Made by a program: the position numbers and the translations under genes. A stretch of 64,000 bases of DNA from Pseudomonas sp. PDNC002 (GTDB taxonomy: Bacteria; Pseudomonadota; Gammaproteobacteria; Pseudomonadales; Pseudomonadaceae), in the NCBI RefSeq assembly GCF_016919445.1, contig NZ_CP070356.1:6141502-6205501 (forward strand), read 5' to 3'. The notes beneath the pieces are model-generated. The model did no database searches and had not been told where the DNA came from. It saw only the letters and a program-made list of their open reading frames with translations. Below are positions 5,591-24,960 of the stretch, piece by piece; the first letter of the stretch is position 1; the number at the start of each line of letters is the position of its first letter.

Positions 5591-6511
5591 TCAACCGACC
5601 TGCCGGCCCTCGCCCTCGTCTCGCGCGCGCACCTGTTCCCGCAGCCACTGGCGGAACAGCAGCACCTCCGGCGGTGGACGCTTGCCGCCCTTTGGCAACA
5701 GCAGGTAGTGGGCCTGGTCGATGGGCAGTTCGCCATCGAACGCGGCCACTACCCTGCCGGCATCCAGGTAAGGCTGAGCCAGGCTGCGCAGCACCAACGC
5801 AAAACCCGAACCGGCAGCGGCCAGCTCCAACGCCGTCAGCGAGGTGTCCACTTGCACACCCTTGCGGCTGGTGAAGTCGGCGACTCCGGCCGCCCGGAAC
5901 CAGCGAGTCCACAGATCCTCGCAGCCCATGATGTGGATCAGATTGCGCTGCGCCAGGCTTACCAACTGCTCGTCGCTACCGGCCCTCGCCCGCCATACCG
6001 GGCTACACACCGGAATGGACGCCTCGGTCTGGATCAGTTCGGCATCGAATCCCTCCCAATGCCCATCGCCGAAGCGGATGTCGATGGCGCTATGGTCCGC
6101 ACTCAGCGCATCAGCCCAGATATCGGCGAACAGCCGCACCTCGATGTTCGGGTAGAGCGCCATGAACTCACCGAGCCTGGGGGCCAGCCAGAGCACTGCG
6201 AAGGCCGCCGTCGAACGCACGGTAATGGAGCGATCGCCGCGGCTACCGAACAGACCGACAGTCGACATCGACAGCTCATCGAACGCCTTGCGGATCGAAG
6301 GCAGGTAGGCCAGTCCCATGTCCGTCAGGCGCACACCACGCGGCAAGCGCTCGAACAACTGGAACCCCAGGTACTGCTCCAGGGAGCGAATCTGCAGGCT
6401 GACCGCCGCGGGCGTCATGTGCAGCTCATTCGCCGCCGCCGAGAAGCTCAGGTTGCGCGCCGCCGCTTCGAAGGAGCGCAGCCAGGGAAGATGAGGAAGT
6501 TGATGGCCCAC
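5591..6511 (-). CDS. LysR-family regulator (GcvA-like) of the GMC/ALDH operon
   Basis: This 306-residue LysR protein has an HTH with LSFSAAANELHMTPAAVSLQIRSLE at residues 21-45 and an effector domain containing SITVRSTAAFAVLWLAPRLGEF and FGDGHWEGFDAELI. These resemble the GcvA/AmpR branch. It is divergent from the GMC oxidoreductase operon with 163 bp between the start codons, so it most likely controls that operon. The inducer is unknown. The ATG at 6509-6511 gives the normal LysR N-terminus. Confidence 0.88.
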   Translation of the reverse strand: MGHQLPHLPWLRSFEAAARNLSFSAAANELHMTPAAVSLQIRSLEQYLGFQLFERLPRGVRLTDMGLAYLPSIRKAFDELSMSTVGLFGSRGDRSITVRSTAAFAVLWLAPRLGEFMALYPNIEVRLFADIWADALSADHSAIDIRFGDGHWEGFDAELIQTEASIPVCSPVWRARAGSDEQLVSLAQRNLIHIMGCEDLWTRWFRAAGVADFTSRKGVQVDTSLTALELAAAGSGFALVLRSLAQPYLDAGRVVAAFDGELPIDQAHYLLLPKGGKRPPPEVLLFRQWLREQVRARDEGEGRQVG

Positions 6512-6674
6512 CGTGCACCTTTAAATTTTTTTGCCCCAAAGGAGCGTTTTTTCTTGTTTGTCTTAAGGTGAGCCTCCCCCAAACAATCCCCCCAACGCAA
6601 GTGCAGTACGACAGCGCCCGACATCCAAGGCGAATCGGGCCGTCACACGGAATCATCTTGGCTGGGAGGGGCGC

Positions 6675-10905: not shown

Positions 10906-10958
10906 ATTACCCCGTTCGAGACGACTCCTGACAAGACATCCAATAAGAAGGAACACTC

Positions 10959-12554
10959 ATGGGCAATCACATCGACGACCTCACAAACCGCCTGCGCCTT
11001 GGGCAGATCGACCGCCGCACCTTCGTGAAGAGCATGTTCGCCGCCGGCGCGGCCCTGAGCTCAGGCCTGGCGGGCCAGGTGTTCGCCGCCGAGCAGGCCG
11101 GCACCCCCAAGCGCGGAGGCCACTTCAAGCTAGGCATTGCAACCGGCTCGACCACTGACTCCTTCGACCCCGGTACCTACGGCGACAACTACATGCAGTC
11201 GGTGGGACATTCGGTTCACAACTACCTGACCGAGATCAGCAACACGGGAGAGTTGGTGGGCGAACTGGCGCAGAGCTGGGAGCCTTCGGCCGACGCCAAG
11301 ACCTGGACCTTCACCTTGCGCAATGGAGTGGAGTTCCACAACGGCAAATCCCTGGGCGCCGAAGACGTCGTGGCCTCGCTCAACCACCATCGCGGGCCCG
11401 ATTCCCGCTCCGCCGCCAGCAGCATCCTTGCGCCCATCAGCGACATCCACGCGGACGGCAAGAACCGCGTCATCGTTACCCTGGACGGCGGCAACGCCGA
11501 CTTCCCCTACCTGGTCTCGGACTATCACCTGCCAATCATGCCGTCGAAGGATGGCAAGGTGGACGCGAACTCCGGCGTGGGCTGCGGCGCTTACATCCGC
11601 GAGAGCTTCGATCCGGGTGTGAAGACAGTGGTCAAGCGCAACCCCAATTACTGGAAGACCGATCGCGGCTGGTTCGACTCCGTGGAGTTCCTGGTGATCG
11701 CCGACGTCGGCGCCCGCACCAATGCGCTGAACACTGGCGAAATCCACGCCATGAACGGTTGCGACCTGAAGACGGTACACCTGCTCAAGCGAAACTCCAG
11801 GCTGGAGGTGTCCTCCATCAAGGGAGGGCAGCACTACAGCCTGCCGATGAACGTCACCCAGGCGCCCTTCACCGATCCCAACATCCGCGAGGCACTCAAA
11901 TACGCCATCAACCGCGAGGCCTTGCTGCAGACCATCCTGCGCGGCCATGGCGAGGTTGCCAACGATCACCCGATCAACTCGGGTTATCGCTATTTCGCCA
12001 GTGACATCCCGCAACGCCAGTACGACCCGGACAAGGCCCGCTTCCACCTCAAGCAGGCCGGGCTGGACAGCCTGAAGGTCGATCTCAGCGCCGCCGATGC
12101 CGCGTTTGCGGGTTCGGTGGACACAGCCGTGCTGTTCAAGGAGCACGCGGCAAAAGCAGGCATCGACATCAACGTCGTGCGCGAGCCCAACGACGGCTAC
12201 TGGAAAAACGTCTGGATGAAGAAGGCCTGGAGCATGGATTACTGGGGCGGCAAACCCACCGAGGACTGGGCATTCTCCCTGGTCTACGGCAAGGGCGCGG
12301 CGTGGAACGAAACGTTCTGGGACAACGCCCGCTTCAACGAGCTACTGGTGGGTGCCCGCTCCGAACTGGACGACGCCAAGCGCCGGCAGATGTACGGCGA
12401 GATGCAGCTCCTGCTGCGTGACCAGGGCGGCGCGTTGATCCCGCTGTTCGCCAACTACGTCGATGGCATCTCCACCCTGATCGGCCACGGCCGCATCGGC
12501 AACAACTGGGACCTGGACGGCCTGCGCGCCGCCGAACGCTGGTGGTTCGCCTGA
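10959..12554 (+). CDS. ABC transporter substrate-binding protein, family 5, Tat-exported
   Basis: This 531-residue periplasmic protein belongs to the SBP_bac_5 (dipeptide/oligopeptide/nickel) family: WTFTLRNGVEFHNGKSLGAEDV and NPNYWKTDRGWFDSVEF are family hallmarks. Its N-terminus has a twin-arginine motif (DRRTFVKSM, Arg19-Arg20) and a hydrophobic core, with likely cleavage after VFA near residue 43, so export is by Tat. It begins 53 bp after the ALDH gene with an AAGGAA ribosome site. The permease and ATPase genes follow directly, giving a complete importer for the operon's substrate, which may be a glycoside, opine or peptide-like compound (inferred). Confidence 0.9.
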   Translation: MGNHIDDLTNRLRLGQIDRRTFVKSMFAAGAALSSGLAGQVFAAEQAGTPKRGGHFKLGIATGSTTDSFDPGTYGDNYMQSVGHSVHNYLTEISNTGELVGELAQSWEPSADAKTWTFTLRNGVEFHNGKSLGAEDVVASLNHHRGPDSRSAASSILAPISDIHADGKNRVIVTLDGGNADFPYLVSDYHLPIMPSKDGKVDANSGVGCGAYIRESFDPGVKTVVKRNPNYWKTDRGWFDSVEFLVIADVGARTNALNTGEIHAMNGCDLKTVHLLKRNSRLEVSSIKGGQHYSLPMNVTQAPFTDPNIREALKYAINREALLQTILRGHGEVANDHPINSGYRYFASDIPQRQYDPDKARFHLKQAGLDSLKVDLSAADAAFAGSVDTAVLFKEHAAKAGIDINVVREPNDGYWKNVWMKKAWSMDYWGGKPTEDWAFSLVYGKGAAWNETFWDNARFNELLVGARSELDDAKRRQMYGEMQLLLRDQGGALIPLFANYVDGISTLIGHGRIGNNWDLDGLRAAERWWFA

Positions 12555-12599
12555 TCGCCAGCCGCCCGAATCCGCCGGTTGCCGAGGAGGTCCGCCGAC

Positions 12600-13559
12600 A
12601 TGCGTCATCCGTTGTTGAAAATGCTCGCCCAACGCCTGCTGCTGGGTTTGCTGAGCCTGTGGGTGGTCTCGATCATCATCCTGCTGGGCGTGTCATTCCT
12701 GCCGGGCGACATCGCCACCGAGATCCTCGGCCAGTCGGCCACTCCTGAAGCCGTAGCCGCCTTCCGCCAGACTCTGGGGCTGGACCAGCCCCTGTACCTG
12801 CGCTATTTCCACTGGCTGGGCGGCATGCTGCAGGGTGATTTTGGCGAGTCCCTGGCCAACGGCCGGGCCATCGCCGAATTACTCGCCACGCGACTGCCCA
12901 ACACCCTGATGCTGGCGCTGTTCGCCGCCGTTGTTGCAGTCCCGCTGGCACTGGCGCTGGGCTTCCTGGCGGCGATCTACCGCAATGGTGTATTCGACCG
13001 CCTGATCAATGTCTTCACCTTGAGCTGTATCTCCTTCCCGGAGTTCTTCCTGGCCTACCTGCTGATCCTGTTGCTGTCCGTGAAAGCCGGCTGGCTGCCA
13101 AGCCTGGCCAGCGTCGACGCCAGCCAGCCATTGAGCGAGCGCCTCTACTACATGGCGCTGCCGGCGCTGACCCTGACACTGGTGGTGGTCGCGCACATGA
13201 TGCGCATGAGTCGCGCCGCCATCGTCAACCTGCTGGCCAGCCCCTACATCGAAATGGCGAAGCTCAAGGGCCTGCCGCGCTGGCGCATCATTCTTCGACA
13301 TGCCCTGCCGAACGCCTGGGCGCCGATCATCAACGTCATCGTGATCAACCTGGCTTACCTGGTGGTCGGCGTGGTCGTGGTCGAGGCGGTGTTCGTCTAC
13401 CCCGGCATGGGGCAACTGATGGTCGATTCGGTGAAGAAACGCGACCTGCCGGTTGTGCAGGCCTGCAGCCTGGTGTTCGCCTCGACCTACATCCTGCTCA
13501 ACCTCGCCGCCGACATTCTGGCCACCCTCACCAACCCCCGCCTGAGGCACCCGCGATGA
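12600..13559 (+). CDS. ABC transporter permease, DppB-type
   Basis: The 319-residue inner-membrane protein has about six transmembrane segments and the EAA-loop region KGLPRWRIILRHALPNAWAPI used to contact the ATPase. The N-terminal segment followed by the periplasmic GLDQPLYLRYFHWLGGMLQGDFGES is typical of DppB/OppB. The ATG at 12600 follows GAGGAGG; an upstream start at 12579 is less likely. It is part of the oligopeptide-type importer and overlaps the next permease by 4 bases. Confidence 0.92.
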   Translation: MRHPLLKMLAQRLLLGLLSLWVVSIIILLGVSFLPGDIATEILGQSATPEAVAAFRQTLGLDQPLYLRYFHWLGGMLQGDFGESLANGRAIAELLATRLPNTLMLALFAAVVAVPLALALGFLAAIYRNGVFDRLINVFTLSCISFPEFFLAYLLILLLSVKAGWLPSLASVDASQPLSERLYYMALPALTLTLVVVAHMMRMSRAAIVNLLASPYIEMAKLKGLPRWRIILRHALPNAWAPIINVIVINLAYLVVGVVVVEAVFVYPGMGQLMVDSVKKRDLPVVQACSLVFASTYILLNLAADILATLTNPRLRHPR

Positions 13560-14476
13560 TCGAACAGGGCAGCAATCTCCCCCTGGCGGCGCAGCACGCC
13601 ATGCCGGAACACACCCCGTCAATGCACCAGACAACGGCGACTCTGGGCCGCCTGTTCCGTGCAGTGCGCCATGCGCCGTGGAGCGCGCAACTGGGCCTGC
13701 TGATCATCGCGCTCTACACGGCGGCGGCACTGCTCGCTCCCTGGATCGCACCCTACGGCGAGTCTCAGGTAGTCGCCAGCGAGTTCGAACCCTGGAGCCG
13801 GCAATTCCTGCTGGGCACCGACAACCTAGGCCGCGACCTTTTCACGCGCCTGCTCTATGGCGGCCGCAACACCCTCGGCATTGTGTTGCTTGCCACCTGC
13901 CTGGCATTCCTCCTGGGCGGAATCGCAGGGCTGCTGGCAGCGGTCAAGGGCGGTTGGACCGACCAATTGCTGTCGCGTCTGGTCGATGTACTAATGGCCA
14001 TTCCGCAACTGATCTTCGCCCTGCTGCTGCTCACGATGTTCGGTACCTCGGTGCCGATGCTGATCGCGATCATCGCCGTGCTCGACTCGACGCGGGTGTT
14101 CCGCCTGACCCGCGCAGTGGCGACCAACGTGGTACAGCTGGACTTCGTTGAATCCGCGCGGCTGCGCGGGGAAAGCACCTCGTGGATCATGTTCCGCGAA
14201 GTTCTGCCGAACATCCTGCCGCCGCTGGTGGCGGAGTTCGGCCTGCGCTTCTGCTTCACCTTCCTGTTCATCAGCGCCTTGAGCTTCCTCGGCCTGGGTA
14301 TCCAGCCGCCCACCGCCGACTGGGGCTCGATGGTGCGCGACAACGCGACCCTGATCAGCTACGGGGAAATCACCCCGCTTCTGCCGGCCGCCGCCATCGC
14401 GATCCTCACCATCGGTGTGAACTTCGTGGTGGACTGGTTCCTGCACATGACGAGTGGACTGCACGATGGCCAATGA
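13556..14476 (+). CDS. ABC transporter permease, DppC-type
   Basis: The 306-residue membrane protein carries the DppC/OppC features: FLLGTDNLGRDLFTRLLYGGRNTL after the first membrane segment, and the EAA region ARLRGESTSWIMFREVLPNILPPL. It pairs with the DppB-type permease. The ATG at 13556 overlaps the upstream stop. It has an unusually long polar N-terminal stretch (about 40 residues before the first membrane segment), so a downstream start (e.g. Met at 13601 or 13622) is possible. Confidence 0.92.
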   Translation: MIEQGSNLPLAAQHAMPEHTPSMHQTTATLGRLFRAVRHAPWSAQLGLLIIALYTAAALLAPWIAPYGESQVVASEFEPWSRQFLLGTDNLGRDLFTRLLYGGRNTLGIVLLATCLAFLLGGIAGLLAAVKGGWTDQLLSRLVDVLMAIPQLIFALLLLTMFGTSVPMLIAIIAVLDSTRVFRLTRAVATNVVQLDFVESARLRGESTSWIMFREVLPNILPPLVAEFGLRFCFTFLFISALSFLGLGIQPPTADWGSMVRDNATLISYGEITPLLPAAAIAILTIGVNFVVDWFLHMTSGLHDGQ

Positions 14477-16097
14477 AACCCGCGACAACCTGCTGCTGAA
14501 GATTTCCGGGCTGCACGTGCAGACGCTGAATGGCGCCCCCATCCTCGATGGCATCGACCTCACGCTCAGGCGCGGTGAAGTGCTGGGCCTGATCGGCGAG
14601 TCCGGCGCGGGTAAATCCACACTGGGCCTGTCGGCGATGGGCTATGAACGCCCCGGTTGCCGGATCAGCGCCGGTAGCATCCTCTTCGACGGCGAAGACC
14701 TGGCCAAGGCGTCGGAGCCACGCAGGCGGCAGCTATGGGGATCGCGCATCGCCTATGTGGCGCAATCGGCGGCGGCATCGTTCAACCCCGCACATCGACT
14801 GATCGACCAGTACGTCGAAACCGCGCTGCAGCACGGAGTGATGCCGGAACAACAAGCCAGGGCCGATGCCGTCGAGATGTTCCGGCGCATGCGCCTGCCG
14901 CAGCCGGAAACCTTCGGCCTGCGTTATCCACACCAGGTATCGGGAGGCCAACTGCAACGCGCCATGACCGCCATGGCGATGGCCTGCCGCCCGGACCTGA
15001 TCATCTTCGACGAACCCACCACTGCCCTGGACGTGACCACCCAGCTCGAAGTCCTGGCCACCATTCGCGACCTGGTCTGCCAGTTCGACACTGCTGCGCT
15101 GTACATCACCCATGACCTGGCTGTGGTCGCACAGATGGCCGACCGCATCATGGTCCTGCGTCACGGCAAGACGGTAGAGGAAGCCGACACCCGCAGCATG
15201 CTCGACAGCCCCCAGGAGGCCTACACCCGCACCCTGTGGTCGGTCCGCTCCCTGCAACACGAACCCTGTGCGCAGCACGAAACGCCGCCTCTGGTGCAAC
15301 TGTCGAACCTCAGCGCCAGCTATGGTCCGCTCCCTGTGCTGCAGGATGTTTCGCTGGAGATACCCACGGGCGCGACAGTCGCGGTGGTCGGCGAGTCCGG
15401 TTCCGGAAAGTCGACGCTGGCACGCGTGCTGACCGGGCTTCTGCCACCGAACCAGGGCTCGATGACCTTCCAGGGCGAGGCACTGGCGCGCCGCTGTCAG
15501 TCACGCCCGGCTGCGACCCTGAAGAACATCCAGATGATCTACCAGATGCCGGACACGGCACTCAATCCTCGCCAGCGTATCCGCGACATCCTCGGGCGCC
15601 CGCTCGCGTTCTACCTGGGGCTGAGCGGGACGGCCCGGGAAGCCCGACTGCATGAGTTACTGGAGCAGATCGAACTGCCACCTGAGCAATTCCTTGACCG
15701 CTTCCCGGGTGAGCTCTCGGGCGGCCAGAAGCAGCGCATCTGCATTGCCCGCGCGCTGGCGGCTGAACCGCGGCTGATCATCTGCGACGAGGTCACCTCG
15801 GCCCTGGACCAGGTAGTGGCCAAGGGCGTCCTGCTACTGCTCAAGCGTCTGCAACGACAACTGGGATTGTCCTACCTGTTCATCACCCACGATCTGGATA
15901 CGGTGCGCAGCATCGCCGACCACATCGTGGTCATGCACCAGGGGAGGATCGTTGAACAAGGCCCTGCAGCCGAGGTGTTCGCCCCGCCCCATCATGATTA
16001 CACCGCCCGCCTGCTGGCATCGGTTCCGGAAATGGACCCGGACTGGTTGACCCGCCAACTTGCCAATCGCACTGCTACCTCGGGAGTTCCCGCGTGA
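14466..16097 (+). CDS. ABC transporter ATPase with two fused nucleotide-binding domains
   Basis: This 543-residue protein is a DppD-DppF-like fusion. The first half has Walker A GESGAGKST, signature VSGGQLQR and Walker B DLIIFDEPTTALD. The second has [17 protein letters not shown] and RLIICDEVTSALD. Both sites look intact, so one polypeptide can drive the two-permease importer. The start at 14466 lies 11 bases before the upstream stop. The same fused design is known for dipeptide and glutathione-type importers (DdpF/GsiA). Confidence 0.93.
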   Translation: MANETRDNLLLKISGLHVQTLNGAPILDGIDLTLRRGEVLGLIGESGAGKSTLGLSAMGYERPGCRISAGSILFDGEDLAKASEPRRRQLWGSRIAYVAQSAAASFNPAHRLIDQYVETALQHGVMPEQQARADAVEMFRRMRLPQPETFGLRYPHQVSGGQLQRAMTAMAMACRPDLIIFDEPTTALDVTTQLEVLATIRDLVCQFDTAALYITHDLAVVAQMADRIMVLRHGKTVEEADTRSMLDSPQEAYTRTLWSVRSLQHEPCAQHETPPLVQLSNLSASYGPLPVLQDVSLEIPTGATVAVVGESGSGKSTLARVLTGLLPPNQGSMTFQGEALARRCQSRPAATLKNIQMIYQMPDTALNPRQRIRDILGRPLAFYLGLSGTAREARLHELLEQIELPPEQFLDRFPGELSGGQKQRICIARALAAEPRLIICDEVTSALDQVVAKGVLLLLKRLQRQLGLSYLFITHDLDTVRSIADHIVVMHQGRIVEQGPAAEVFAPPHHDYTARLLASVPEMDPDWLTRQLANRTATSGVPA

Positions 16098-16504
16098 AAC
16101 AAAAACCCCAGCTGACCCAGCAGGAGACCGACCACCTGCTGCGCACCGCCCGTCAGGAAGCGCAACGCAACCAGTGGCCGGTGTCGATTGCCATCGTCGA
16201 CGACGGCGGCCACCTGCTGGCCTTCGAGCGCCTCGACGGCTGTGCCCCCATCGCCGCCTACATCGCCACCGAGAAGGCCCGGACCGCTGCGCTGGGCCGC
16301 CGCGATTCGGCGGCCTACGAGAGCATGATCAACCAGGGGCGCAGCGCATTCCTCTGTGTGCCGGAGCTGCGCGGCATGCTCGAAGGCGGCGTGCCCGTGA
16401 GGGTGGCGGATCAGGTGATCGGCGCCATCGGCGTGTCCGGCGTCAAGGCGGAGCAGGACGCCCAGGTCGCGCGAGTGGCCGCCACCAGCCTGGAAGCCGG
16501 CTAG
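16094..16504 (+). CDS. GlcG/HbpS-family (DUF336) protein
   Basis: The 136-residue protein starts with GTG overlapping the preceding stop (GTGA). Its sequence (VSIAIVDDGGHLLAFERLDGCAPIAAYIATEKARTAA, then GGVPVRVADQVIGAIGVSG) is characteristic of the GlcG/HbpS family. Members are small cytoplasmic or exported proteins, some heme-binding, and are often the last gene of glycolate or other catabolic operons; the function is unsettled. It closes the eight-gene operon that begins at 6675. Confidence 0.85.
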   Translation: MKQKPQLTQQETDHLLRTARQEAQRNQWPVSIAIVDDGGHLLAFERLDGCAPIAAYIATEKARTAALGRRDSAAYESMINQGRSAFLCVPELRGMLEGGVPVRVADQVIGAIGVSGVKAEQDAQVARVAATSLEAG

Positions 16505-16560: not shown

Positions 16561-16592
16561 CATGTGATTGAAAAACAACATAGATTGACGCG
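16561..16592 (+). promoter_or_regulatory. Candidate LysR-type operator, copy 1
   Basis: This 32-bp stretch lies 58 bp before the binding-protein gene and matches 24 of 32 positions with the element at 19454-19485. It keeps the T-N11-A core (T16565, A16577), outer arms ATGT/ACAT, and ends in CATAGATTGACGC. A shared element before both arms of the same module suggests binding by the LysR protein encoded at 18502-19431. Confidence 0.55.
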
Positions 16593-16650: not shown

Positions 16651-17427
16651 ATGACAAGAACAATGCGCGCCCTGGCCGGTTGCCTGCTGCTGGCATCCGC
16701 CTGTCTCACCCCGTTCGCCGCCCAGGCCGGCGACCTCGATGGCATCAAGCAGAAAGGCGAACTCAGCTTCGCACTTACCGGCAAATACCCGCCGTTCAGC
16801 TTCATCGATATCGACGGCAAGCTGCAGGGCTTCGACGTCGACATCGGCGATGGCATCGCCCAGCGCCTGGGCGTGACAGCCAAGCCGGTGACCACCGCCT
16901 GGGACGGCATCGTCGGCGGCCTGCTCGCCGGCAAGTACGACGCGATCATCGGCAGCCTGGCGATCACCGACGAACGCCTGAAGGCCGTCGACTTCTCCGA
17001 GCCCTATTACCTCTCCGGCGCGCAATTGTTCGTACGCAAGGACAGCCCGCTGCAGAGCATCGACGAGATGGACGGCAAGGTCATCGGCATCACCCTGGGC
17101 GAGACATACGAAAGCTGGCTGCGCGAGCACAAGCCCAACGTCACGCTGAAAACCTACAAGGGCCTGCCGGACATCCTCCTCGACCTGCAGAACAAGCGCA
17201 TCGACGGCTTCGTCACCGACAAGATCGCCGGCCTGCTGACCATCCGCGACCGCAACCTCAACGCCCGCCCGGCCGGCGAGCTGCTCTACCCTGAGAAGAT
17301 GGGCATCGCCGTGCGCAAGGACAACCCGGAGCTGAAGGCGGCGATCAACGCAGCACTCGCCGATCTCGACAAGGACGGCACCTACAAGGGCATCAGCGAG
17401 AAATGGCTGGGCACCGACATCCGTTGA
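16651..17427 (+). CDS. Amino-acid-type ABC substrate-binding protein (family 3)
   Basis: The 258-residue protein has a Sec signal peptide cleaved after AQA (residue ~26) and the SBP_bac_3 fold (FALTGKYPPFSFIDIDGKLQGFDVDIGDGIA, then GSLAITDERLKAVDFSEPYY). It binds a polar amino acid or an amino-acid-like ligand in the periplasm. No permease follows directly; the only polar-amino-acid permease and ATPase nearby are at 19642-21062, past the LysR gene, so together they would form one importer. The longer frame from 16060 is open only by chance. The amidohydrolase gene follows after 13 bp. Confidence 0.9.
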   Translation: MTRTMRALAGCLLLASACLTPFAAQAGDLDGIKQKGELSFALTGKYPPFSFIDIDGKLQGFDVDIGDGIAQRLGVTAKPVTTAWDGIVGGLLAGKYDAIIGSLAITDERLKAVDFSEPYYLSGAQLFVRKDSPLQSIDEMDGKVIGITLGETYESWLREHKPNVTLKTYKGLPDILLDLQNKRIDGFVTDKIAGLLTIRDRNLNARPAGELLYPEKMGIAVRKDNPELKAAINAALADLDKDGTYKGISEKWLGTDIR

Positions 17428-17440
17428 AGGACATCGCGCA

Positions 17441-18472
17441 ATGTTGACTTACTTCCATCCCGACCAATATCTCCACCATCCCCGCACCTATCTCTCGCGT
17501 GGACAGATGCGCGTGCCGCAGGAGATTCCCGAACGTCCGCGGCGCCTGCTGCAGGCCGTGGAACGGCTCGGCTTCGAGCTGCGCCAGCCGGATGACCACG
17601 GCATGCAACCGCTGAGCGCGGTACACAGCCCGGAATACCTGCGCTTCCTCGAAGAAGCCCACACCGAGTGGAAGGCCACCGGCCAGGACTGGGGTGACGA
17701 AGTGATCTCCAACGTCTTCGTCCGCGAGCCCAACCCACTGCGCGGGATTCTCGCCAAGGCCGCGCGCTACCTGGCCGATGGCAGTTGCCCGGTCGGCGAG
17801 CAGACCTGGCGCGGCGCCTACTGGTCGGCGCAGAGCGCAGTGGCCGGCGCACGCGCCCTGCTCGACGGCCAGCCCGAGGCCTATGCCCTGTGCCGTCCGC
17901 CGGGACACCACGCGCGCCGCGATGCCGCTGGTGGCTTCTGCTACCTGAACAACGCCGCGATCGCCGCCCAGGAATTGCGCAAGGGTCATGCGCGCGTCGC
18001 CGTGCTGGATACCGACATGCACCACGGCCAGGGCATCCAGGAAATCTTCTACGAACGCGACGACGTGCTGTACGTGTCGATCCATGGCGACCCGACCAAC
18101 TTCTATCCGGTGGTCGCCGGTTACGAGGATGAGCGTGGCGCCGGCGCCGGCCATGGCTACAACGTCAACCTGAGCATGCCCCATGGCTCTGCCGAGTCGG
18201 TGTTCTTCGAGCGGCTGCGCGAGGCCATCGCGGCGCTGCGCCGGTTCGAGCCCGAGGTACTGGTGCTGTCACTGGGCTTCGATATCTACGAGCTCGATCC
18301 GCAGTCCCAGGTCGCGGTGACCAGCGAGGGCTTCAACCGCCTCGGCCAGGCCATCGGCGAACTGGGCCTGTCCACGCTGATCGTCCAGGAAGGCGGCTAC
18401 CACCTGGAGAGCCTGCAGGAGAATGCCGAGCAGTTCTTCAACGGCTTCCTGGCGCCCCGGCGCACTGCGTGA
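17441..18472 (+). CDS. Acetylpolyamine amidohydrolase-like deacetylase (HDAC superfamily)
   Basis: The 343-residue protein has the full HDAC-superfamily active site: His156-His157 (RPPGHHARRD), zinc ligands Asp192 and His194 (DTDMHHGQG) and Asp281 (SLGFDIYELDP), and the transition-state tyrosine in QEGGYH. Length and spacing match bacterial acetylpolyamine amidohydrolases, which release acetate from acetylated amines such as acetylputrescine. Placed between a binding protein and a LysR-controlled aminotransferase/thiolase operon, it may deacetylate an acetamido acid such as 4-acetamidobutyrate (inference). It is cytoplasmic, with no signal peptide. Confidence 0.9.
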   Translation: MLTYFHPDQYLHHPRTYLSRGQMRVPQEIPERPRRLLQAVERLGFELRQPDDHGMQPLSAVHSPEYLRFLEEAHTEWKATGQDWGDEVISNVFVREPNPLRGILAKAARYLADGSCPVGEQTWRGAYWSAQSAVAGARALLDGQPEAYALCRPPGHHARRDAAGGFCYLNNAAIAAQELRKGHARVAVLDTDMHHGQGIQEIFYERDDVLYVSIHGDPTNFYPVVAGYEDERGAGAGHGYNVNLSMPHGSAESVFFERLREAIAALRRFEPEVLVLSLGFDIYELDPQSQVAVTSEGFNRLGQAIGELGLSTLIVQEGGYHLESLQENAEQFFNGFLAPRRTA

Positions 18473-18501
18473 AGCAGCGGCGGCGGCCCTGGCCGCTCGC
18501 C

Positions 18502-19431
18502 TCAGGCCGCAGGCAGGCGCAACGCTGCGGCACAGTCCTCGCGCTGCTGCATGGCCTCGACCACCTGCGCCAGCGCCAGGCGCACATCGCCGATCAGCCG
18601 GTTGCTCTTCAGTTCCTGCTTGTACACCAGGTAGAAGTTGAACCACTGCTCCAGCGCGAAGGGGCGGCTGACCAGCTTCGGGTTTTCGCACAGGTCCGCG
18701 GCGGTGATGGCGTTGACCAGGCTCAGCCCGCCCGTCAGTTCGATCATTGCGCCCATGCTCGACAGGCTCGACTGCAACTCGTGGCGCAGCAGGCGGCGCA
18801 GGCTGTTGTCGCGGTAGATCAGGTGGTCCGACTGGATCGGCTTGATCAGCGTCTGCCCGTCGAGGTCGGCCAGTTCCAGCTCGGCCTTTTCCGCCAGCGC
18901 GCTCGCCGACGGCATCAGCACGCGCATGCGTGCCGCCACCATCGGCGCGAACAGCAGATTGGGCTCGTGCACCTCATAGGACACCAGCGCCATGTCCAGC
19001 CGCCCGGCCTCCACGTCGGCGATCAGCCGGCCGCTGGCCGCCACATCCAGTGACACCGCGATCCCCGGATGCGCCTGCAGGTAACGCTGCACCAGGGCAG
19101 GCCCGAAACGATGCCCGAGCCCCGGCGCACAGCCCAGTTTCAGCGACGCCACGCCGCTGTCCTGGAGGACGAACAGGTCCTCCTCGATGCGCGCCAGGTT
19201 GCCCATCAGCAGGATCGCCTCGTTGAGCATGTAGCGCCCGGCGGCAGTGATCTGCAGGCGCTGGTTCTCACGGGCGAACAGACGAATCTTCAGCGACTCC
19301 TCCAGCCGCGCCAGGGCGTGGCTGACGGCCGACTGGGTAAGCCCCAGCTGCACCGCCGCCTGGCGCGTCGAACCGGTGGTGGCGATGGCGTGGAAGATTT
19401 CCAGGTCGCGCAGGCTGAACTCGGTACGCAT
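18502..19431 (-). CDS. LysR-family regulator of the transport/aminotransferase module
   Basis: This 309-residue LysR protein has an HTH with GSTRQAAVQLGLTQSAVSHALARLEE and an effector domain with LKLGCAPGLGHRFGPALVQRYLQAHPGIAV. It sits between the two arms of the module: convergent with the amidohydrolase (29-bp gap) and divergent from the permease operon (210-bp gap). I chose Met 19431 (MRTEFSLRDLEIF); a start at 19443 would add only four residues. The candidate operator at 19454 lies just upstream of its own start, consistent with autoregulation. Confidence 0.88.
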   Translation of the reverse strand: MRTEFSLRDLEIFHAIATTGSTRQAAVQLGLTQSAVSHALARLEESLKIRLFARENQRLQITAAGRYMLNEAILLMGNLARIEEDLFVLQDSGVASLKLGCAPGLGHRFGPALVQRYLQAHPGIAVSLDVAASGRLIADVEAGRLDMALVSYEVHEPNLLFAPMVAARMRVLMPSASALAEKAELELADLDGQTLIKPIQSDHLIYRDNSLRRLLRHELQSSLSSMGAMIELTGGLSLVNAITAADLCENPKLVSRPFALEQWFNFYLVYKQELKSNRLIGDVRLALAQVVEAMQQREDCAAALRLPAA

Positions 19432-19453
19432 GGTCGGGAACACCCTGGCCGGT

Positions 19454-19485
19454 CAAATGATGAAAAAAGATCATAAATTGACGCT
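19454..19485 (+). promoter_or_regulatory. Candidate LysR-type operator, copy 2
   Basis: The element lies 22 bp upstream of the LysR start and 156 bp upstream of the permease start. It contains the palindrome ATGAT-N8-ATCAT (19457-19474) with T19458-N11-A19470, and ends CATAAATTGACGC. It is 75 percent identical over 32 bp to the element at 16561, in the same orientation relative to the + strand operons. Confidence 0.6.
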
Positions 19486-19641
19486 GTTTTTTGTCAATGC
19501 AAGACTCGCTGCGTGTTCTCGAACAACCTAAACCCTTTCAGAACAGGGGTCTTGGACCGAACACCTGGGTATTAAAATAATTTGTAGGAATCACCATTCG
19601 TTCCCCGCGTTTGGCTCCCGACACCCATCCCGAGAATAAAA

Positions 19642-20304
19642 ATGTTCGACTTCAACCTCGTGCTCCATTACCTGCCGATGCTGCTCAAGGCAGCCGGCGT
19701 CACCGTCGAGCTGACCCTGCTGGCCATCGTTTTCGGCCTGCTGATCGGCCTGCTCGCCGCCCTCGCCCGCCTGTCCCGGCACCGCGCCCTGCGCTGGACC
19801 GCCGCCGGCTACATCTGGCTGATCCGCTCGACGCCGCTGCTGGTCCAGCTGTTCATCATCTACTTCGGCCTGCCGCAGTTCGGCTTCGAACTGTCGCCCT
19901 TCACCTCGGGGGTGATCGGCCTGGCGCTGAACGTCGGCGCCTACAACGCCGAGACCATCCGCGCCGGCATCCAAGCCATTCCCCTGGGGCAGGTCGAAGC
20001 CTCGCGCTCGCTGGGCTTCGGCACCGCGCGGACCATGCGGCTGATCATCCTGCCGCAGGCGTTCAAGCTGATCGTGCCGCCGCTGGGCAACAACCTGATC
20101 ATCCTGATCAAGGACACCTCGCTGGTGTCCACCATCACCCTGGCCGAGCTGTTCATGCGCACCCAGCAACTGGTCGGCGCCACCTTCAAGCCGTTCGAGC
20201 TGTATTTCGCCTGCGCGCTGATCTACGCGCTGCTGACCACCATCACCAGCCTGCTGCTGCAACTGTTCGAGCGGCGCCTGCTGCTCAAGGGAGGACGGGC
20301 ATGA
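19642..20304 (+). CDS. Polar amino acid ABC transporter permease
   Basis: The 220-residue membrane protein has about five transmembrane segments and the His/Glu/Gln-type permease pattern ([52 protein letters not shown], the EAA loop). Such permeases form homodimers when a single gene is present, as here. It is first in a six-gene operon and overlaps its ATPase by 4 bases. The cognate binding protein is probably that at 16651. Confidence 0.92.
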
Positions 20305-21062
20305 GCCGCGCCGACGTACAAATCCAGCTGAAAGATATCCACAAGCACTACGGCCCCCTGGAGGTGCTCAAGGGCATCGACCTGGACGTCCACAAGGGCG
20401 AGGTGATGGTGCTGATCGGCCCCAGCGGCTCGGGCAAGAGCACCCTGCTGCGCTGCGTGAACATGCTCGAACAGCCCACGCGCGGCGAGATCTTCTTCCA
20501 GGACCAACTGATCAATGACCGCCAGCGCAGCCACCGCGCGCAGGAAAAGTACCTCAACGGCCTGCGCATGAAGGTCGGCATGGTGTTCCAGCACTTCAAC
20601 CTGTTCCCGCACCTGACCGTGCTGGAGAACATCACCATCGCCCCGACCCAGTTGCAGGGCGTCGACCCGCGCCAGGCGCGCGCCGAGGCCGAGGAGTTGC
20701 TGGAGAAGGTCGGCGTGCTGGACAAGCGCGACGTCTACCCCGGCAACCTCTCCGGCGGCCAGAAGCAACGCGTGGCCATTGCCCGCGCCCTGGCGCTCAA
20801 ACCCGACGCGATGCTGTTCGACGAACCGACATCGGCGCTCGACCCGGAAATGGTCGGCGGCGTGCTCAATGTGATGGAGAGCCTGGCCCGCAGCGGCATG
20901 ACCATGATGGTGGTGACCCACGAAATGCGCTTCGCCGAGAAGGTCGCCGACCGCGTGGTGTTCATGGCCGACGGCAACATCGTCGAGCAGGGCACCCCGC
21001 AGGAAGTGTTCCGCGCGCCGCAACAGCAACGCACCCGCGCGTTCCTCGCCGACATCGGCTGA
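20301..21062 (+). CDS. Polar amino acid ABC transporter ATPase
   Basis: The 253-residue ATPase of the GlnQ/HisP class has Walker [10 protein letters not shown], the Q-loop segment [19 protein letters not shown], signature LSGGQKQR, Walker [15 protein letters not shown] and the switch His in [17 protein letters not shown]. It energises the adjacent permease. The ATG at 20301 overlaps the permease stop. Confidence 0.94.
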
Positions 21063-21117
21063 GACACCTAATCAAGTGCGCACGCCAGGGCGGGCGCCAT
21101 CAACCATGGGGATTCGC

Positions 21118-22446
21118 ATGTCCGACTACCTGTTCTACCAATCCGCCGTGCGCTTGCCGACCGTCTCGCACGCCCAGGGCATCTATGCCTGGGACGAGCA
21201 TGGCCAGCGCTACCTGGACGCCTGCTCCGGGGCCATCGTCGCGCAGCTCGGCCACAGCCATCCGGCAGTACGCGAGGCCATGCTGGCGCAACTGGACAAG
21301 GTGGCCTTTGCCTACCGCACCCAGTTCGAGAACCAACCGGCGCTGGACCTCGCCGAGCGCCTGGTCAACCTCACTGGCCAGCGCTTCGACCGGGTGTTCT
21401 TTTCCTCCGGCGGCTCAGAGTCGGTGGAGTCAGCGCTGAAGATTGCCCGCCAGTACTGGTACGCCAAGGGCGAACCCCAGCGCCGGGTGTTCATCAGCCG
21501 CAAGCCGGCCTACCACGGCTCGACCATGGGCGCGCTGGCGATGACCAGCTACACGCCGCTGACCCAGCCCTTCGAGCCGATGTTCCAGCACTATCCGAAG
21601 ATCGCCTCGCCGACCCAGTACCGCGTGCCCGCCGGCCTGAGCGCCGAGGCCCATGCGATTGCCTGCGCCGACGAACTGGAAGCGGCGATCCTGGAAATCG
21701 GCGCGGAGAACGTCGCCGCTTTCATCGCCGAACCCATCGGCGGCGCCAGCACCGGCGCGGAAGTGCCGCACGACGCGTACTTCCCGCGTATCCAGGCGAT
21801 CTGCAAGCGCCACGGCATCCTGCTGATCCTCGACGAAGTGATGACCGGTATCGGCCGCACCGGCCGCTGGTTCGGCTACGAACACTGGGACGTGCAGGCC
21901 GACATCCTCTGCCTCGCCAAGGGCCTGGGCGCCGGCTACTACCCGGTGTCGGCGGTGCTGACCCGCGCCGAACTGACCGACCCGATCCTCTCCTCCGGCG
22001 GCTTCCAGCATGGCTACACCTACGCCGGCAACCCGCTGGCCAGCGCCACCGCGCTGGCAGTGATCCAGGCCATCGAGGATGAGAACCTGGTGAGCAAGGT
22101 CGCCGAAAACGGCGCCTACCTGCTGGAGCGCCTCAAGGCCCTTGGCGCGCGCTACGAGTTCGTCGGCGACGTGCGTGGCCGCGGCTACCTGCAGGCCATC
22201 GAATACGTCGCCGACCGCGCCGGCAAGACGCCCTTCCCGCTGGCCGCCAACGTCAGCGACAACATCACCCGCCTGGCCCGCGAGCGCGGCCTGATCATCT
22301 ACCCGCGCCGTTCGCTGATGGGCGAACAGGGCGACCACACGCTGATCTCGCCGCCGCTGATCACTACCCGCGAACAGTGCGACGAAATCGTCGAACTGCT
22401 CGGCGCCACCTTCGACGCCTTCCAGGCGCAGCAGGCCGGCCGATGA
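21118..22446 (+). CDS. Class III PLP-dependent aminotransferase
   Basis: This 442-residue enzyme has the class III features FFSSGGSESVESALKIARQY (PLP phosphate loop), LILDEVMTGIGRTGRWFGYEHW (Asp contacting PLP nitrogen) and Lys268 (LCLAKGLGAGYYPVSA) for the Schiff base. Class III enzymes usually act on omega- or beta-amino groups. The downstream CoA-transferase and thiolase need a 3-oxoacid, so a beta-amino acid donor is likely, for example N6-acetyl-beta-lysine (inference). The start at 21118 follows GGGG; a start at 21106 cannot be excluded. It overlaps the next gene by 4 bases. Confidence 0.9.
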   Translation: MSDYLFYQSAVRLPTVSHAQGIYAWDEHGQRYLDACSGAIVAQLGHSHPAVREAMLAQLDKVAFAYRTQFENQPALDLAERLVNLTGQRFDRVFFSSGGSESVESALKIARQYWYAKGEPQRRVFISRKPAYHGSTMGALAMTSYTPLTQPFEPMFQHYPKIASPTQYRVPAGLSAEAHAIACADELEAAILEIGAENVAAFIAEPIGGASTGAEVPHDAYFPRIQAICKRHGILLILDEVMTGIGRTGRWFGYEHWDVQADILCLAKGLGAGYYPVSAVLTRAELTDPILSSGGFQHGYTYAGNPLASATALAVIQAIEDENLVSKVAENGAYLLERLKALGARYEFVGDVRGRGYLQAIEYVADRAGKTPFPLAANVSDNITRLARERGLIIYPRRSLMGEQGDHTLISPPLITTREQCDEIVELLGATFDAFQAQQAGR

Positions 22447-23123
22447 ACAAGCAGTGCTCGCTGGAAGAAGCCGTCGCCGGCATCGTCGACGGCAGCAGCA
22501 TCATGGTCGGCGGTTTCGGCTCACCCGGCACGCCGTTCTCCCTGCTGGAGGAATTGGCGCGCCAGGGCAAGCGTGACCTGACCATCATCAAGAATGACGC
22601 CAACCAGGACGGCTACGGCGTGTCGCGGCTGATCGAGGCCGGCGCGATCCGCAAGATGATCACCACCCACCTCGGCCTAAGCGGCGCCGCGCGCAAGGCC
22701 TACACCGCCGGGCAGCTGGAAGTGGAGTTCGTTTCCCAGGGCCTCTTCGCCGAGCGCATCCGCTGCGCCGGCGTCGGCCTGCCGGCGTTCCTCAGCGATA
22801 TCGAGATTCCCGAGGAACTGGGCGAGCAGCGCCAGACAGTCAACTTCGAAGGTCGTCAGCTATACGTCGAACCGGCGCTGCGCGCGGACTACGCCTTCAT
22901 CGCCGGGCACCGTGCCGACCATGCCGGCAACCTGCAATACCACGGCAGCGCCCGCAACTTCGGCCCGCTGATGGCGATGGCCGCCGACCGCGTGATCGCC
23001 GAGGTCTACGACCTCAGCGAGCAGGCCCTGGCGGCCGACAGCATCCACACCCCCGGCATCTTCGTGCACCACCTGGTCGCCGTCACAAGGAGCTCCCATG
23101 AGTACCAGCCCATCCCTCGCTGA
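22443..23123 (+). CDS. 3-oxoacid CoA-transferase, subunit A
   Basis: The 226-residue protein has the family I CoA-transferase alpha pattern (SSIMVGGFGSPGTPFSLLEELARQGKRDLTII, and the middle GLGQ-type CoA region around FVSQGLFAERIRCAGVGLPAF). It pairs with the beta subunit, whose start lies 26 bases before this stop. The heterodimer would move CoA from succinyl- or acetyl-CoA to a 3-oxoacid. Similar subunits include PcaI, AtoD and DhcA, so the substrate needs the context: an upstream aminotransferase and a downstream thiolase. Confidence 0.9.
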   Translation: MNKQCSLEEAVAGIVDGSSIMVGGFGSPGTPFSLLEELARQGKRDLTIIKNDANQDGYGVSRLIEAGAIRKMITTHLGLSGAARKAYTAGQLEVEFVSQGLFAERIRCAGVGLPAFLSDIEIPEELGEQRQTVNFEGRQLYVEPALRADYAFIAGHRADHAGNLQYHGSARNFGPLMAMAADRVIAEVYDLSEQALAADSIHTPGIFVHHLVAVTRSSHEYQPIPR

Positions 23124-23751
23124 CCCGCGGGACATCATCGCCCGCCGGGCCGCGCGGGAAATCCGCGACGGCCAGCTGGTGAACCTCGGCATCGGCCTGC
23201 CGACCCTGATCCCCGGCTATGTGCCGGAGCACATCCAGGTGTGGATCCACTCGGAAAACGGCATCGTCGGCGTCGGCCCGCAGGCTGGCGCACACAACCT
23301 CGACGCTGAGCTGATCGACGCCGGCGGCGGCTACGTTACCGTGGTGCCGGGCGGCGCCATCGTCGACAGCGCCACCTCCTTCGGCATCATCCGCCGCGGC
23401 CTGCTCGACATCACCTTCCTCGGCGCCCTGCAGGTTTCGCAGCACGGCGACCTGGCCAACTGGCTGGTGCCGGGCAAGATCGTCGCCGGCATCGGCGGCG
23501 GCGCGGAACTGGCGCAGAAGGCCCGCCAGGTGATCGTCACCATGCCGCACTGCGACAAGGACGGCCGCGCCAAGATCGTCGAACGCTGCGAGCTGCCGCT
23601 CACCGCGCGCCGCTGCGTGACGCGAATCATCACCGAGCACGCGGTCTTCGATATCGACGACGAAGGCCTGCTGCTGCGGGAAATCCTCGGCGACCTGAGC
23701 CTGGCCCAACTGCAAGCGATCACCGCGCCCTTCCGCGACGCCCGCCACTGA
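23098..23751 (+). CDS. 3-oxoacid CoA-transferase, subunit B
   Basis: This 217-residue beta subunit has NLGIGLPTLIPGYVP and the catalytic glutamate Glu53 in HSENGIVGVGP, which forms the enzyme-CoA thioester, then GGYVTVVPGGAIVDSATSFGIIRRG. It starts inside the alpha gene after a GGAG ribosome site, a strongly coupled pair, and is followed 15 bp later by the thiolase. Comparable pairs are PcaIJ and DhcAB. Confidence 0.92.
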   Translation: MSTSPSLADPRDIIARRAAREIRDGQLVNLGIGLPTLIPGYVPEHIQVWIHSENGIVGVGPQAGAHNLDAELIDAGGGYVTVVPGGAIVDSATSFGIIRRGLLDITFLGALQVSQHGDLANWLVPGKIVAGIGGGAELAQKARQVIVTMPHCDKDGRAKIVERCELPLTARRCVTRIITEHAVFDIDDEGLLLREILGDLSLAQLQAITAPFRDARH

Positions 23752-23766
23752 CCCGGACTGCCAACC

Positions 23767-24960
23767 ATGACTTCGACTGCCTCCCCGGCGTACATCGCCG
23801 GTTACGCCCGCACGCCCATCGGTCGGGCCTATCGCGGCGCGTTCAACGACACCGACGCCCCGACGCTGGCCGCCTTCGCCCTGCGTGCGCTCCTGCAACG
23901 GCACGATCTCGACCCGCAGTCCATCGACGATGTGATACTCGGCTGCGCCCTGCCCGAGGGCTCGCAGTACTACAACATTGGCCGCATGGCGGCGCTGGCG
24001 GCACGGCTGCCGGTGCGCACGCCCGGGATGACCGTGGACCGCCAGTGCGCCTCCGGCCTGATGTCAGTGGCCATCGCCAGCCAGCGCATCCAGGCCGGCG
24101 ACGCCGAACTGATCCTCGCCGGCGGCGTGGAATCCATCAGCCTGGTGCAGAACCAGCACATGAACACTTACCGGCGCCAGGACCGGCAGTTGCTGGACAT
24201 CCTGCCCGCCGCCTATATGCCGATGGTCGAGACCGCAGAAGTGGTCGCCACGCGCTACGGTGTCAGCCGCGAAGCGCAGGACACCTACGCTCTGGAAAGC
24301 CAGCGCCGCGCCGCGATGGCGCAAGCCCAAGGTCTGTTCGAAGCGGAGATCACCGCGGTCCGCACCGTGCAGCGGATCGAAGATCGCAGCAGCGGCGAGC
24401 AGTCCTTCGTCGAAGTCGACGTGGCGCGCGACGAATGCCCGCGCCCCGCCACCAGCGCGGAAGGCCTGGCGGCACTGTCACCGGTGTTTGCCCAAGGCTC
24501 GGTCAGCGCCGGTAATGCCTGCCCGCTGTCCGACGGCTCCGCCGCTTGCCTGGTGGTGTCCGAGGCGCAGTTGCAGCGCAACGATCTGCAACCGCTGGGG
24601 CGCCTGGTCAGCTGCGTGGTGGAAGGCTGCGCGCCCGACGAAATGGGCATCGGCCCGGTCCCGGCGATCCGCAAGCTGTTGCAGCGTTGCCGGCTGAGCA
24701 TCGATGACATCGACCTGTGGGAAATCAACGAAGCCTTCGCCTCGCAGGTTGTGTACAGCGCGCAGACCCTGGGCATCCCGGCGGAGCGGCTGAACGTCAA
24801 CGGCGGCGCCATCGCCCTCGGCCATCCCTACGGCATGAGTGGCACCCGCCTGGTCGGCCATGCGCTGCTCGAAGGTCGTCGGCGCAAGGCACGCTACGTC
24901 GTGGTCAGCATGTGCATTGGCGGCGGGCAGGGGGCGGCGGCGCTGTTCGAATGCCTCTGA
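23767..24960 (+). CDS. Acetyl-CoA acyltransferase (thiolase)
   Basis: The 397-residue protein has all thiolase catalytic residues: nucleophile Cys94 ([10 protein letters not shown]), His353 ([12 protein letters not shown]) and proton-donor Cys383 ([10 protein letters not shown]). It would cleave a 3-oxoacyl-CoA into acetyl-CoA and a shortened acyl-CoA. As the last gene after the CoA-transferase pair it gives the standard end of a 3-oxoacid pathway, like PcaIJ-PcaF. In the beta-lysine hypothesis the product would be 4-acetamidobutyryl-CoA. Confidence 0.93.

What the first reader, a model, noticed from the sequence alone, without database searches (positions are those of the whole stretch)
16651..24960. 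Candidate gene set for L-beta-lysine / N6-acetyl-beta-lysine degradation
Seen: binding protein, HDAC-type deacetylase, LysR regulator, single-permease amino-acid ABC importer, class III aminotransferase, CoA-transferase A/B and thiolase, with intact active sites. Known: older Pseudomonas biochemistry describes N6-acetyl-beta-lysine transaminase (EC 2.6.1.65), conversion of 3-oxo-6-acetamidohexanoate to acetyl-CoA plus 4-acetamidobutyryl-CoA, and 4-acetamidobutyrate deacetylase (EC 3.5.1.63), activities I recall as lacking assigned genes. Inferred: every step of that route after acetylation has a matching enzyme here. The acetyltransferase is not in this cluster, so it lies elsewhere or the acetylated osmolyte is taken up directly.
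Basis: partly seen in the sequence, partly recalled or inferred. Interest (0 to 1): 0.75.

Follow-up and report, generated by a model that had tools for sequence, protein, structure and literature searches.

The report
Gene cluster for beta-lysine-type catabolism
Nine neighbouring genes in a Pseudomonas genome most likely import and break down beta-lysine or its acetylated form, and they offer gene candidates for a pathway that older biochemistry described but for which I found no assigned genes.

Summary
Nine intact genes (SBP, HDAC-fold deacetylase, LysR, single permease, ATPase, class III aminotransferase, CoA-transferase A/B, thiolase) lie at 16651-24960, in the same order in all 4 of 25 genus genomes that carry the aminotransferase. 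A 27-bp box occurs only twice per genome, before SBP-HDAC and before the permease-to-thiolase unit, so the two units look co-regulated.
Of 109 related aminotransferase loci, chosen by aminotransferase similarity alone, 60 carry a beta-keto-acid cleavage enzyme and 32 CoA-transferase A/B, never both; 93 carry an HDAC or M20 deacetylase; 52 a GNAT nearest to SSAT2/thialysine (omega-amino) acetyltransferases. The 12 loci on the other branch have none of these at the thresholds used. This is the recalled beta-lysine route: acetylation, beta-transamination, beta-keto cleavage, deacetylation.
That the substrate is beta-lysine is inferred. No lysine 2,3-aminomutase was found beside the clusters, and the window's regulon has no acetyltransferase: it may import N6-acetyl-beta-lysine or use an unlinked GNAT. 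The HDAC may act on 4-acetamidobutyrate or its CoA ester.

The parts
16651..17427 (+). Periplasmic amino-acid-binding protein (SBP family 3) of the ABC importer
   Evidence: PF00497; 54-57% identical SBPs lie beside related aminotransferases in Marinobacterium, Desulfopila and a Desulfobulbaceae MAG
17441..18472 (+). HDAC-fold deacetylase, proposed to remove the omega-N-acetyl group late in the route
   Evidence: PF00850; best PDB relative 3men, 580 bits; zinc/catalytic motifs intact; HDAC in 68 of 109 related loci
18502..19443 (-). LysR-type regulator, divergent from the permease unit
   Evidence: PF00126 + PF03466; same place in the 4 genus genomes with the aminotransferase
19642..20304 (+). 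Amino-acid ABC importer permease (single)
   Evidence: PF00528
20301..21062 (+). Amino-acid ABC importer ATPase
   Evidence: PF00005
21118..22446 (+). Class III aminotransferase, proposed N6-acetyl-beta-lysine (beta-amino) transaminase
   Evidence: PF00202; anchor of the neighbourhood survey
22443..23123 (+). 3-oxoacid CoA-transferase subunit A
   Evidence: TIGR02429 over cut-off
23098..23751 (+). 3-oxoacid CoA-transferase subunit B
   Evidence: TIGR02428 over cut-off
23767..24960 (+). Thiolase, proposed to cleave 6-acetamido-3-oxohexanoyl-CoA
   Evidence: PF00108/PF02803; Cys94, His353, Cys383 intact
16565..16591 (+). Copy 1 of the 27-bp putative LysR operator, upstream of SBP-HDAC
   Evidence: conserved in 4 genomes; genome-wide search
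19458..19484 (+). Copy 2 of the 27-bp putative LysR operator, between LysR and permease
   Evidence: conserved in 4 genomes; genome-wide search

Best explanation
The nine genes encode uptake and catabolism of beta-lysine in its N6-acetylated form. Proposed steps: (1) the SBP-permease-ATPase imports the amino acid. (2) If it enters free, a GNAT acetylates the omega-amino group so that the later keto acid cannot close into a ring. In many relatives this GNAT is in the operon; here it is absent, so either the acetylated osmolyte N6-acetyl-beta-lysine is imported or an unlinked SSAT2-like GNAT (G000:C1:5725691-5726167) does it. (3) The class III aminotransferase removes the 3-amino group, giving 6-acetamido-3-oxohexanoate. 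(4) CoA-transferase A/B makes the CoA ester and the thiolase splits it to acetyl-CoA and 4-acetamidobutyryl-CoA. (5) The HDAC-fold enzyme removes the acetyl group, from the CoA ester or the free acid, giving GABA, which the genome's GABA aminotransferase takes on. Shown by sequence: gene content, intact active-site motifs, conservation, shared box, exchange of equivalent enzymes in relatives. Inferred: every reaction, the order of steps, the box being the LysR operator, and the substrate.
For: Gene content and active sites. Same nine genes in the 4 carriers among 25 genus genomes. Shared 27-bp box exactly twice per genome, only in this cluster, so the HDAC and aminotransferase units look co-regulated. 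In the 109-row branch of aminotransferases: BKACE 60, CoA-transferase A+B 32, both 0, neither 17 (5 of the 17 have under 5 kb on a side); HDAC and/or M20 93; GNAT 52. BKACE and CoA-transferase (with thiolase in 25 of 32, against 0 of 60) exclude each other, as expected of two ways to cleave one beta-keto acid. The linked GNATs are nearest to SSAT2, thialysine acetyltransferase and ornithine N5-acetyltransferase in the PDB: omega-amino acetylation of lysine/ornithine-like compounds. Six of 6 linked BKACEs tested pass NF053538, whose named substrate has an uncharged side group, and score far lower on the 3-keto-5-aminohexanoate model, as expected if the amine is masked. A GABA aminotransferase over cut-off exists in the genome.
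Against: No gene that makes or names beta-lysine is linked: a KamA motif (43 loci) and a KamA-like query gave nothing around these aminotransferases, and 0 of 299 Pseudomonadota genomes pass the AblA cut-off, though 16 match below it. In the window's own type (CoA-transferase) a GNAT is linked in only 4 of 32 loci, and no GNAT shares the box. CoA-transferase with HDAC and no M20 is rare: 5 of 32, namely the four Pseudomonas and one other. 16 of 109 loci have no deacetylase within 8 kb. HDAC orthologs at 65-73% occur unlinked in other genomes, one (G171) without a strong aminotransferase match. The window HDAC's family is best known for acetylpolyamines. NF053538 is named for 3,5-dioxohexanoate, not for 6-acetamido-3-oxohexanoate.
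Confidence: 0.62

Rival explanations
1. Same chemistry, other substrate: a different 3,omega-diamino acid or its acetylated form (for example beta-ornithine, beta-homolysine or a beta-lysine-containing conjugate).
For: The neighbourhood evidence fixes the reaction types, not the chain length. Extra genes differ between lineages: DMFA2_C-type protein in rhizobia, amidohydrolase plus alanine racemase in roseobacters, so substrates or precursors may differ.
Against: The GNAT's nearest solved relatives act on lysine/ornithine-sized substrates (names); beta-lysine and its N6-acetyl form are the known natural compounds of this class (recalled).
Confidence: 0.22
2. Acetylpolyamine use: the HDAC is an acetylpolyamine amidohydrolase and the aminotransferase acts on the freed diamine.
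For: HDAC best PDB names are acetylpolyamine aminohydrolases/amidohydrolases; PA0321 and PA1409 do this in P. aeruginosa (PMC4784309, abstract and passages).
Against: The four carriers also hold two other APAH-like paralogs each, 39-43% identical to it. The cluster HDAC has PQS where known bacterial polyamine deacetylases have PIS (PMC11532494 passages), and no acid at the column of MrApaH Glu106. Polyamine catabolism has no need of CoA-transferase, thiolase or BKACE. Weakness: PsApaH also lacks Glu106 and is active on polyamines.
Confidence: 0.07
3. Ectoine-like osmolyte use: importer, deacetylase and transaminase of an acetyl-diaminobutyrate route.
For: The ABC subunits score close to ectoine-importer models without reaching them (EhuA 312 of 345, EhuC 186 of 197).
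Against: The recalled ectoine route ends at aspartate semialdehyde and needs no beta-keto cleavage, yet CoA-transferase or BKACE is in 92 of 109 related loci.
Confidence: 0.03
4. Aerobic 3,5-diaminohexanoate or 3-amino-5-oxohexanoate use, with BKACE in relatives acting on 3-keto-5-aminohexanoate or 3,5-dioxohexanoate.
For: Linked BKACEs pass NF053538, named for 3,5-dioxohexanoate (6 of 6 tested).
Against: It leaves the linked acetyltransferase and deacetylase without a role; 3-keto-5-aminohexanoate model scores are 224-245 against a cut-off of 382.
Confidence: 0.06

Closest known systems
Pseudomonas L-beta-lysine degradation by N6-acetylation (older enzymology; EC 2.6.1.65, 3.5.1.51, 3.5.1.63; recalled, no paper read)
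   Same: Reaction types match step by step: transamination at C3, CoA activation, thiolysis, deacetylation to GABA
   Different: No acetyltransferase in this cluster; genes not tied to the purified enzymes; the deacetylase would be HDAC-fold
Bacillus kam/yod locus (kamA with yodP, yodQ, yodR, yodS, yodT; content recalled; kamA and six upstream genes in two operons in B. thuringiensis per PMC4428206 passages)
   Same: Class III aminotransferase, CoA-transferase pair and a deacylase together (recalled for Bacillus); window aminotransferase scores 456 bits on PRK06917 (cut-off 535)
   Different: Window cluster lacks KamA, an AblB-type acetyltransferase and an M20 deacylase, and has HDAC, thiolase and importer. 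YodT is listed as a putative, poorly characterised enzyme (PMC6522883 passages).
AT-BKACE-GNAT-HDAC operons of Shinella, Phyllobacterium and Pararhizobium plasmids (L045, L047, L051)
   Same: Aminotransferase 45-54% identical, HDAC family, same kind of amino-acid importer in Shinella
   Different: BKACE in place of CoA-transferase plus thiolase; GNAT in the operon; two permeases in Shinella; annotated only generically
Acetylpolyamine amidohydrolases (MrApaH, PA0321, PA1409, PsApaH)
   Same: Fold and zinc site
   Different: PQS in place of PIS, no acid at the Glu106 column; different gene company

Membership tests
Beta-lysine (N6-acetyl-beta-lysine) degradation pathway | Beta-amino acid aminotransferase | tested here: inconclusive
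   Class III aminotransferase with intact PLP site; substrate not testable by sequence
Beta-lysine (N6-acetyl-beta-lysine) degradation pathway | CoA activation and thiolysis of a 3-oxo acid | tested here: met
   CoA-transferase A and B over curated cut-offs, thiolase with Cys/His/Cys; chain length not tested
Beta-lysine (N6-acetyl-beta-lysine) degradation pathway | Deacetylase in the same regulon | tested here: met
   HDAC at 17441-18472 behind the same 27-bp box; that the box is the operator is inferred
Beta-lysine (N6-acetyl-beta-lysine) degradation pathway | Acetyltransferase for the omega-amino group in the cluster or regulon | tested here: not met
   None in the cluster; box only twice per genome; SSAT2-like GNATs linked in 52 of 109 relatives, one unlinked copy in this genome
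Beta-lysine (N6-acetyl-beta-lysine) degradation pathway | Enzymes act on N6-acetyl-beta-lysine and its products | not testable with these tools
   Needs enzyme assay
Bacillus-type kam/yod locus | Lysine 2,3-aminomutase (AblA/KamA) | tested here: not met
   No match in the genome at E <= 1e-120 with TIGR03820; none found near related aminotransferases
Bacillus-type kam/yod locus | Aminotransferase of the PRK06917 family (that YodT belongs to it is assumed, not shown) | tested here: not met
   455.7 bits against a cut-off of 535
Acetylpolyamine amidohydrolase | HDAC fold with zinc and catalytic residues | tested here: met
   (by sequence)
Acetylpolyamine amidohydrolase | PIS motif of bacterial polyamine deacetylases | tested here: not met
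   PQS in the window enzyme; motif as described in PMC11532494 (passages)
Acetylpolyamine amidohydrolase | Activity on acetylputrescine or acetylcadaverine | not testable with these tools
   Needs enzyme assay

The most novel reading that the evidence does not exclude
These loci define one modular, so far unassigned pathway for N-acetyl-beta-lysine or beta-lysine that is spread over Pseudomonadota, Thermodesulfobacteriota and a Fidelibacterota MAG, with two exchangeable cleavage modules (CoA-transferase/thiolase or BKACE) and two exchangeable deacetylases (HDAC or M20). The mostly GNAT-less CoA-transferase type, to which the window belongs, scavenges the archaeal/bacterial osmolyte N6-acetyl-beta-lysine directly, and its HDAC-fold enzyme is the 4-acetamidobutyryl-CoA deacetylase.
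Probability: 0.3. Interest if true: 0.75.

Novelty: new variant of a known kind. Interest (0 to 1): 0.62.

Why it matters
It would give genes to enzyme activities that, as far as I recall, have lacked them since the original enzymology, and would give a function to many proteins now named only 'aspartate aminotransferase family' or 'adenosylmethionine-8-amino-7-oxononanoate aminotransferase' (names seen). It would also show how soil and marine bacteria use an osmolyte and antibiotic building block, and add a metabolic role outside polyamines for HDAC-fold enzymes.

Tried and rejected
KamA link: sought with a motif regex in the 43 loci L045-L087, with a KamA-like query from L100, itself under the AblA cut-off, and with TIGR03820 in 299 genomes (16 matches, none over the cut-off). 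Nothing near the clusters. Acetyltransferase in the genus: a GNAT of the A1 type occurs at E <= 1.1e-29 in 22 of 25 genus genomes, carriers or not, so it is not specific. HDAC orthologs outside the cluster: unlinked; from ORF starts read by eye I recognised no polyamine genes beside them (in G171 an aldehyde dehydrogenase-like gene is next to it), not informative. HDAC residue comparison: two reference rows (own5616k, G171) were cut out in the wrong strand or frame and are ignored. The peptide-type ABC block upstream (10959-16097) was rejected as part of the system because it is absent between the same flanks in L065 and L067. The box was not found in the Burkholderia locus L116. No structure was predicted.

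Survey limits: the 109-row set is the tree branch that holds the window; the first count used a score cut (107 rows against 14), which put L049 and L064, both without partners, outside although the tree places them inside. Rows with identical or nearly identical aminotransferases were dropped before counting (3 of 124). The 12 rows on the other branch show no BKACE, CoA-transferase pair, HDAC, M20 or GNAT at the thresholds used (3 have SBP plus permease, 1 a thiolase). But L048 and L050 are annotated beside, and L054 and L055 match at 28-29%, a BKACE of another subfamily that the threshold (1e-40 to a cluster-type query) misses, so the zero for BKACE there is partly a matter of threshold. The tree is a quick one with long branches. 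Literature: ten searches of an open-licence library, judged from listings; the list was capped at 12 of 1,095. Subscription papers, including the older enzymology, are mostly not held.


Full report
What is there. The window holds nine intact genes between 16651 and 24960: a family 3 binding protein, an HDAC-fold deacetylase, a divergent LysR regulator, one amino-acid permease, its ATPase, a class III aminotransferase, CoA-transferase subunits A and B, and a thiolase. Active-site motifs are intact. Genes from the permease to the thiolase run in one direction with small overlaps or gaps. The host genome is a 6.39 Mb single contig. I take it for a Pseudomonas from a relative: the aminotransferase of the same-genus genome G249 sits on a contig of 223660 bases, the length listed for a protein of Pseudomonas sp. 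30_B.

The unit. Only 4 of 25 genomes of the genus carry the aminotransferase (95-100% identical), and in all four the same nine genes are in the same order. In G234 and G249 the block sits directly between the HopJ-like gene and a thioredoxin-reductase-like gene (named by eye) that flank the region in the window, without the 5591-16504 block; in G247 part of that block lies on the other side. A 27-bp sequence occurs upstream of SBP-HDAC and again between LysR and permease, 22 of 27 positions alike. Searched at up to 3 mismatches it is found exactly twice in each of the four genomes, only at these places, and 0 times with the reversed control. I read it as the LysR operator (inference). It ties the HDAC to the aminotransferase unit, and it shows no further gene, such as an acetyltransferase, under the same box.

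Company kept by relatives. The window, L045-L087 and L116-L195 make 124 loci and 121 distinct aminotransferases. A quick maximum-likelihood tree puts 109 of them on one side with the window and 12 on the other (some joins involve long branches). Within 8 kb of the 109: BKACE 60, CoA-transferase A and B 32, both 0, neither 17. Of the 32, 25 also have a thiolase; of the 60, none. HDAC and/or M20 is present in 93 (HDAC 68, M20 31, both 6), GNAT in 52, and SBP with permease in 37. Partners are nearly always on the aminotransferase's strand (HDAC 65 of 68, BKACE 59 of 60, GNAT 50 of 52, M20 30 of 31, CoA-A 31 of 32). Of the 91 loci with more than 5 kb on both sides, 79 have a cleavage module and 81 a deacetylase. 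Against: 17 loci show no cleavage module and 16 no deacetylase, and 57 no GNAT. The window's own combination, CoA-transferase with HDAC and no M20, is rare: 5 of 32, the four Pseudomonas and L068.

Examples. Shinella sp. HZN7 plasmid: SBP, two permeases, ATPase, aminotransferase, BKACE, GNAT, HDAC, then LysR. Rhodobacteraceae M382 plasmid: importer, aminotransferase, CoA-transferase A/B, ArgE/DapE deacylase, thiolase, amidohydrolase, alanine racemase. Marinobacterium, Desulfopila and a Desulfobulbaceae MAG: aminotransferase, SBP 54-57% identical to the window's, single permease, ATPase, CoA-transferase, M20, thiolase. Burkholderia sp. SRS-46: aminotransferase 78%, LysR, permease, ATPase, CoA-transferase, thiolase and SBP together, with the HDAC ortholog (73%) elsewhere in the genome.

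What this says about the chemistry. CoA-transferase plus thiolase, and BKACE, are two known ways to cleave a beta-keto acid (families as named; chemistry from general knowledge), so their exclusion of each other beside one aminotransferase family points to a beta-keto acid made by that aminotransferase. HDAC and M20 are two kinds of amide hydrolase. The GNATs (alignment A1, 10 sequences) are nearest in the PDB to SSAT2 (2bei), thialysine acetyltransferase (12jc; 8yv7 further down) and ornithine N5-acetyltransferase NATA1, which by their names acetylate the omega-amino group of lysine- or ornithine-like compounds. Acetylate, transaminate, cleave, deacetylate is the recalled beta-lysine route. 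All 6 linked BKACEs tested pass NF053538 (3,5-dioxohexanoate) with 495-533 bits against a cut-off of 430, and reach only 224-245 on the 3-keto-5-aminohexanoate model with cut-off 382: a side group without a free amine fits a masked amine, though the model's own name is another compound.

The HDAC. Its best PDB relative is 3men (580 bits), then acetylpolyamine amidohydrolases at 238-275 bits, with human HDAC6 constructs in the same range. P. aeruginosa PA0321 and PA1409 are true polyamine deacetylases (PMC4784309, abstract and passages), and bacterial polyamine deacetylases carry a PIS motif and, in MrApaH, Glu106 (PMC11532494, passages). The window enzyme has PQS and no acid at the Glu106 column; among 71 HDACs from these loci the Ile of PIS is in 5 and an acid at column 106 in 4, while the catalytic His pair is in 71 of 71 and the Tyr in 70 of 71. 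PsApaH also lacks Glu106 and is active on polyamines, so this lowers but does not exclude a polyamine role. The four carriers have two other APAH-like paralogs each, which fit that role better.

The missing acetyltransferase. In the window's type (CoA-transferase) the GNAT is linked in only 4 of 32 loci, against 42 of 60 in the BKACE type. The genome has one good SSAT2-like GNAT at G000:C1:5725691-5726167 (E = 6.8e-36), but the like is in 22 of 25 genus genomes at E <= 1.1e-29. Its nearest PDB entries are 2fe7 and the thialysine acetyltransferase 12jc. Either it serves the pathway or the window's type takes up the acetylated compound. No AblA-type lysine 2,3-aminomutase was found in the genome at the threshold used, or near related clusters, so beta-lysine would have to come from outside. 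A GABA aminotransferase over its cut-off is present for the last step.

Verdict. The reaction scheme is well supported by comparative genomics (I would put it at about 0.85). That beta-lysine or N6-acetyl-beta-lysine is the substrate is the best guess, at about 0.62 overall. My searches listed no paper that assigns genes to this route, but the library lacks most subscription journals; the Bacillus kam locus paper is not held, and a 2019 survey lists YodT as a putative, poorly characterised enzyme (PMC6522883 passages). The pathway is old biochemistry (recalled); the gene set, its modular exchange and the HDAC-fold deacetylase are what would be new.

Noticed in passing
window 5591-16504: A separate catabolic block: LysR, GMC oxidoreductase, enolase-superfamily (MR/MLE) enzyme, aldehyde dehydrogenase, peptide/nickel-type ABC importer and an HbpS-like protein. 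Its first part lies on the other side of the nine-gene cluster in G247 (L066).
   Followed up: partly
window 5101-5442 and 4282-4653: A HopJ-type (PF08888) small protein and FolB form the conserved left flank of the cluster in the genus.
   Followed up: no
G000:C1:6205002-6205868, window about 63501 to its end: Another HDAC-family gene runs over the right end of the window; the genome has seven Hist_deacetyl matches in all.
   Followed up: no
L051, L079, L085, L131, L145, L160, L188, L193, just upstream of the aminotransferase: A gene annotated as, or similar to, an N,N-dimethylformamidase beta subunit-like protein precedes the aminotransferase in these clusters; it may release the substrate from an amide.
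   Followed up: no
L046, L132, L134, L138, L140, L143, L157, L159, L185, downstream of the cluster: An amidohydrolase and an alanine-racemase-like gene follow the core genes in roseobacter-type clusters.
   Followed up: no
L048, L050 (Paracoccus and Rhizobium plasmids): Aminotransferases of the other branch sit with a glnHPQ-type importer, a C45 peptidase-like protein, an RpiR regulator and another subfamily of BKACE: possibly a different beta-amino acid pathway.
   Followed up: partly
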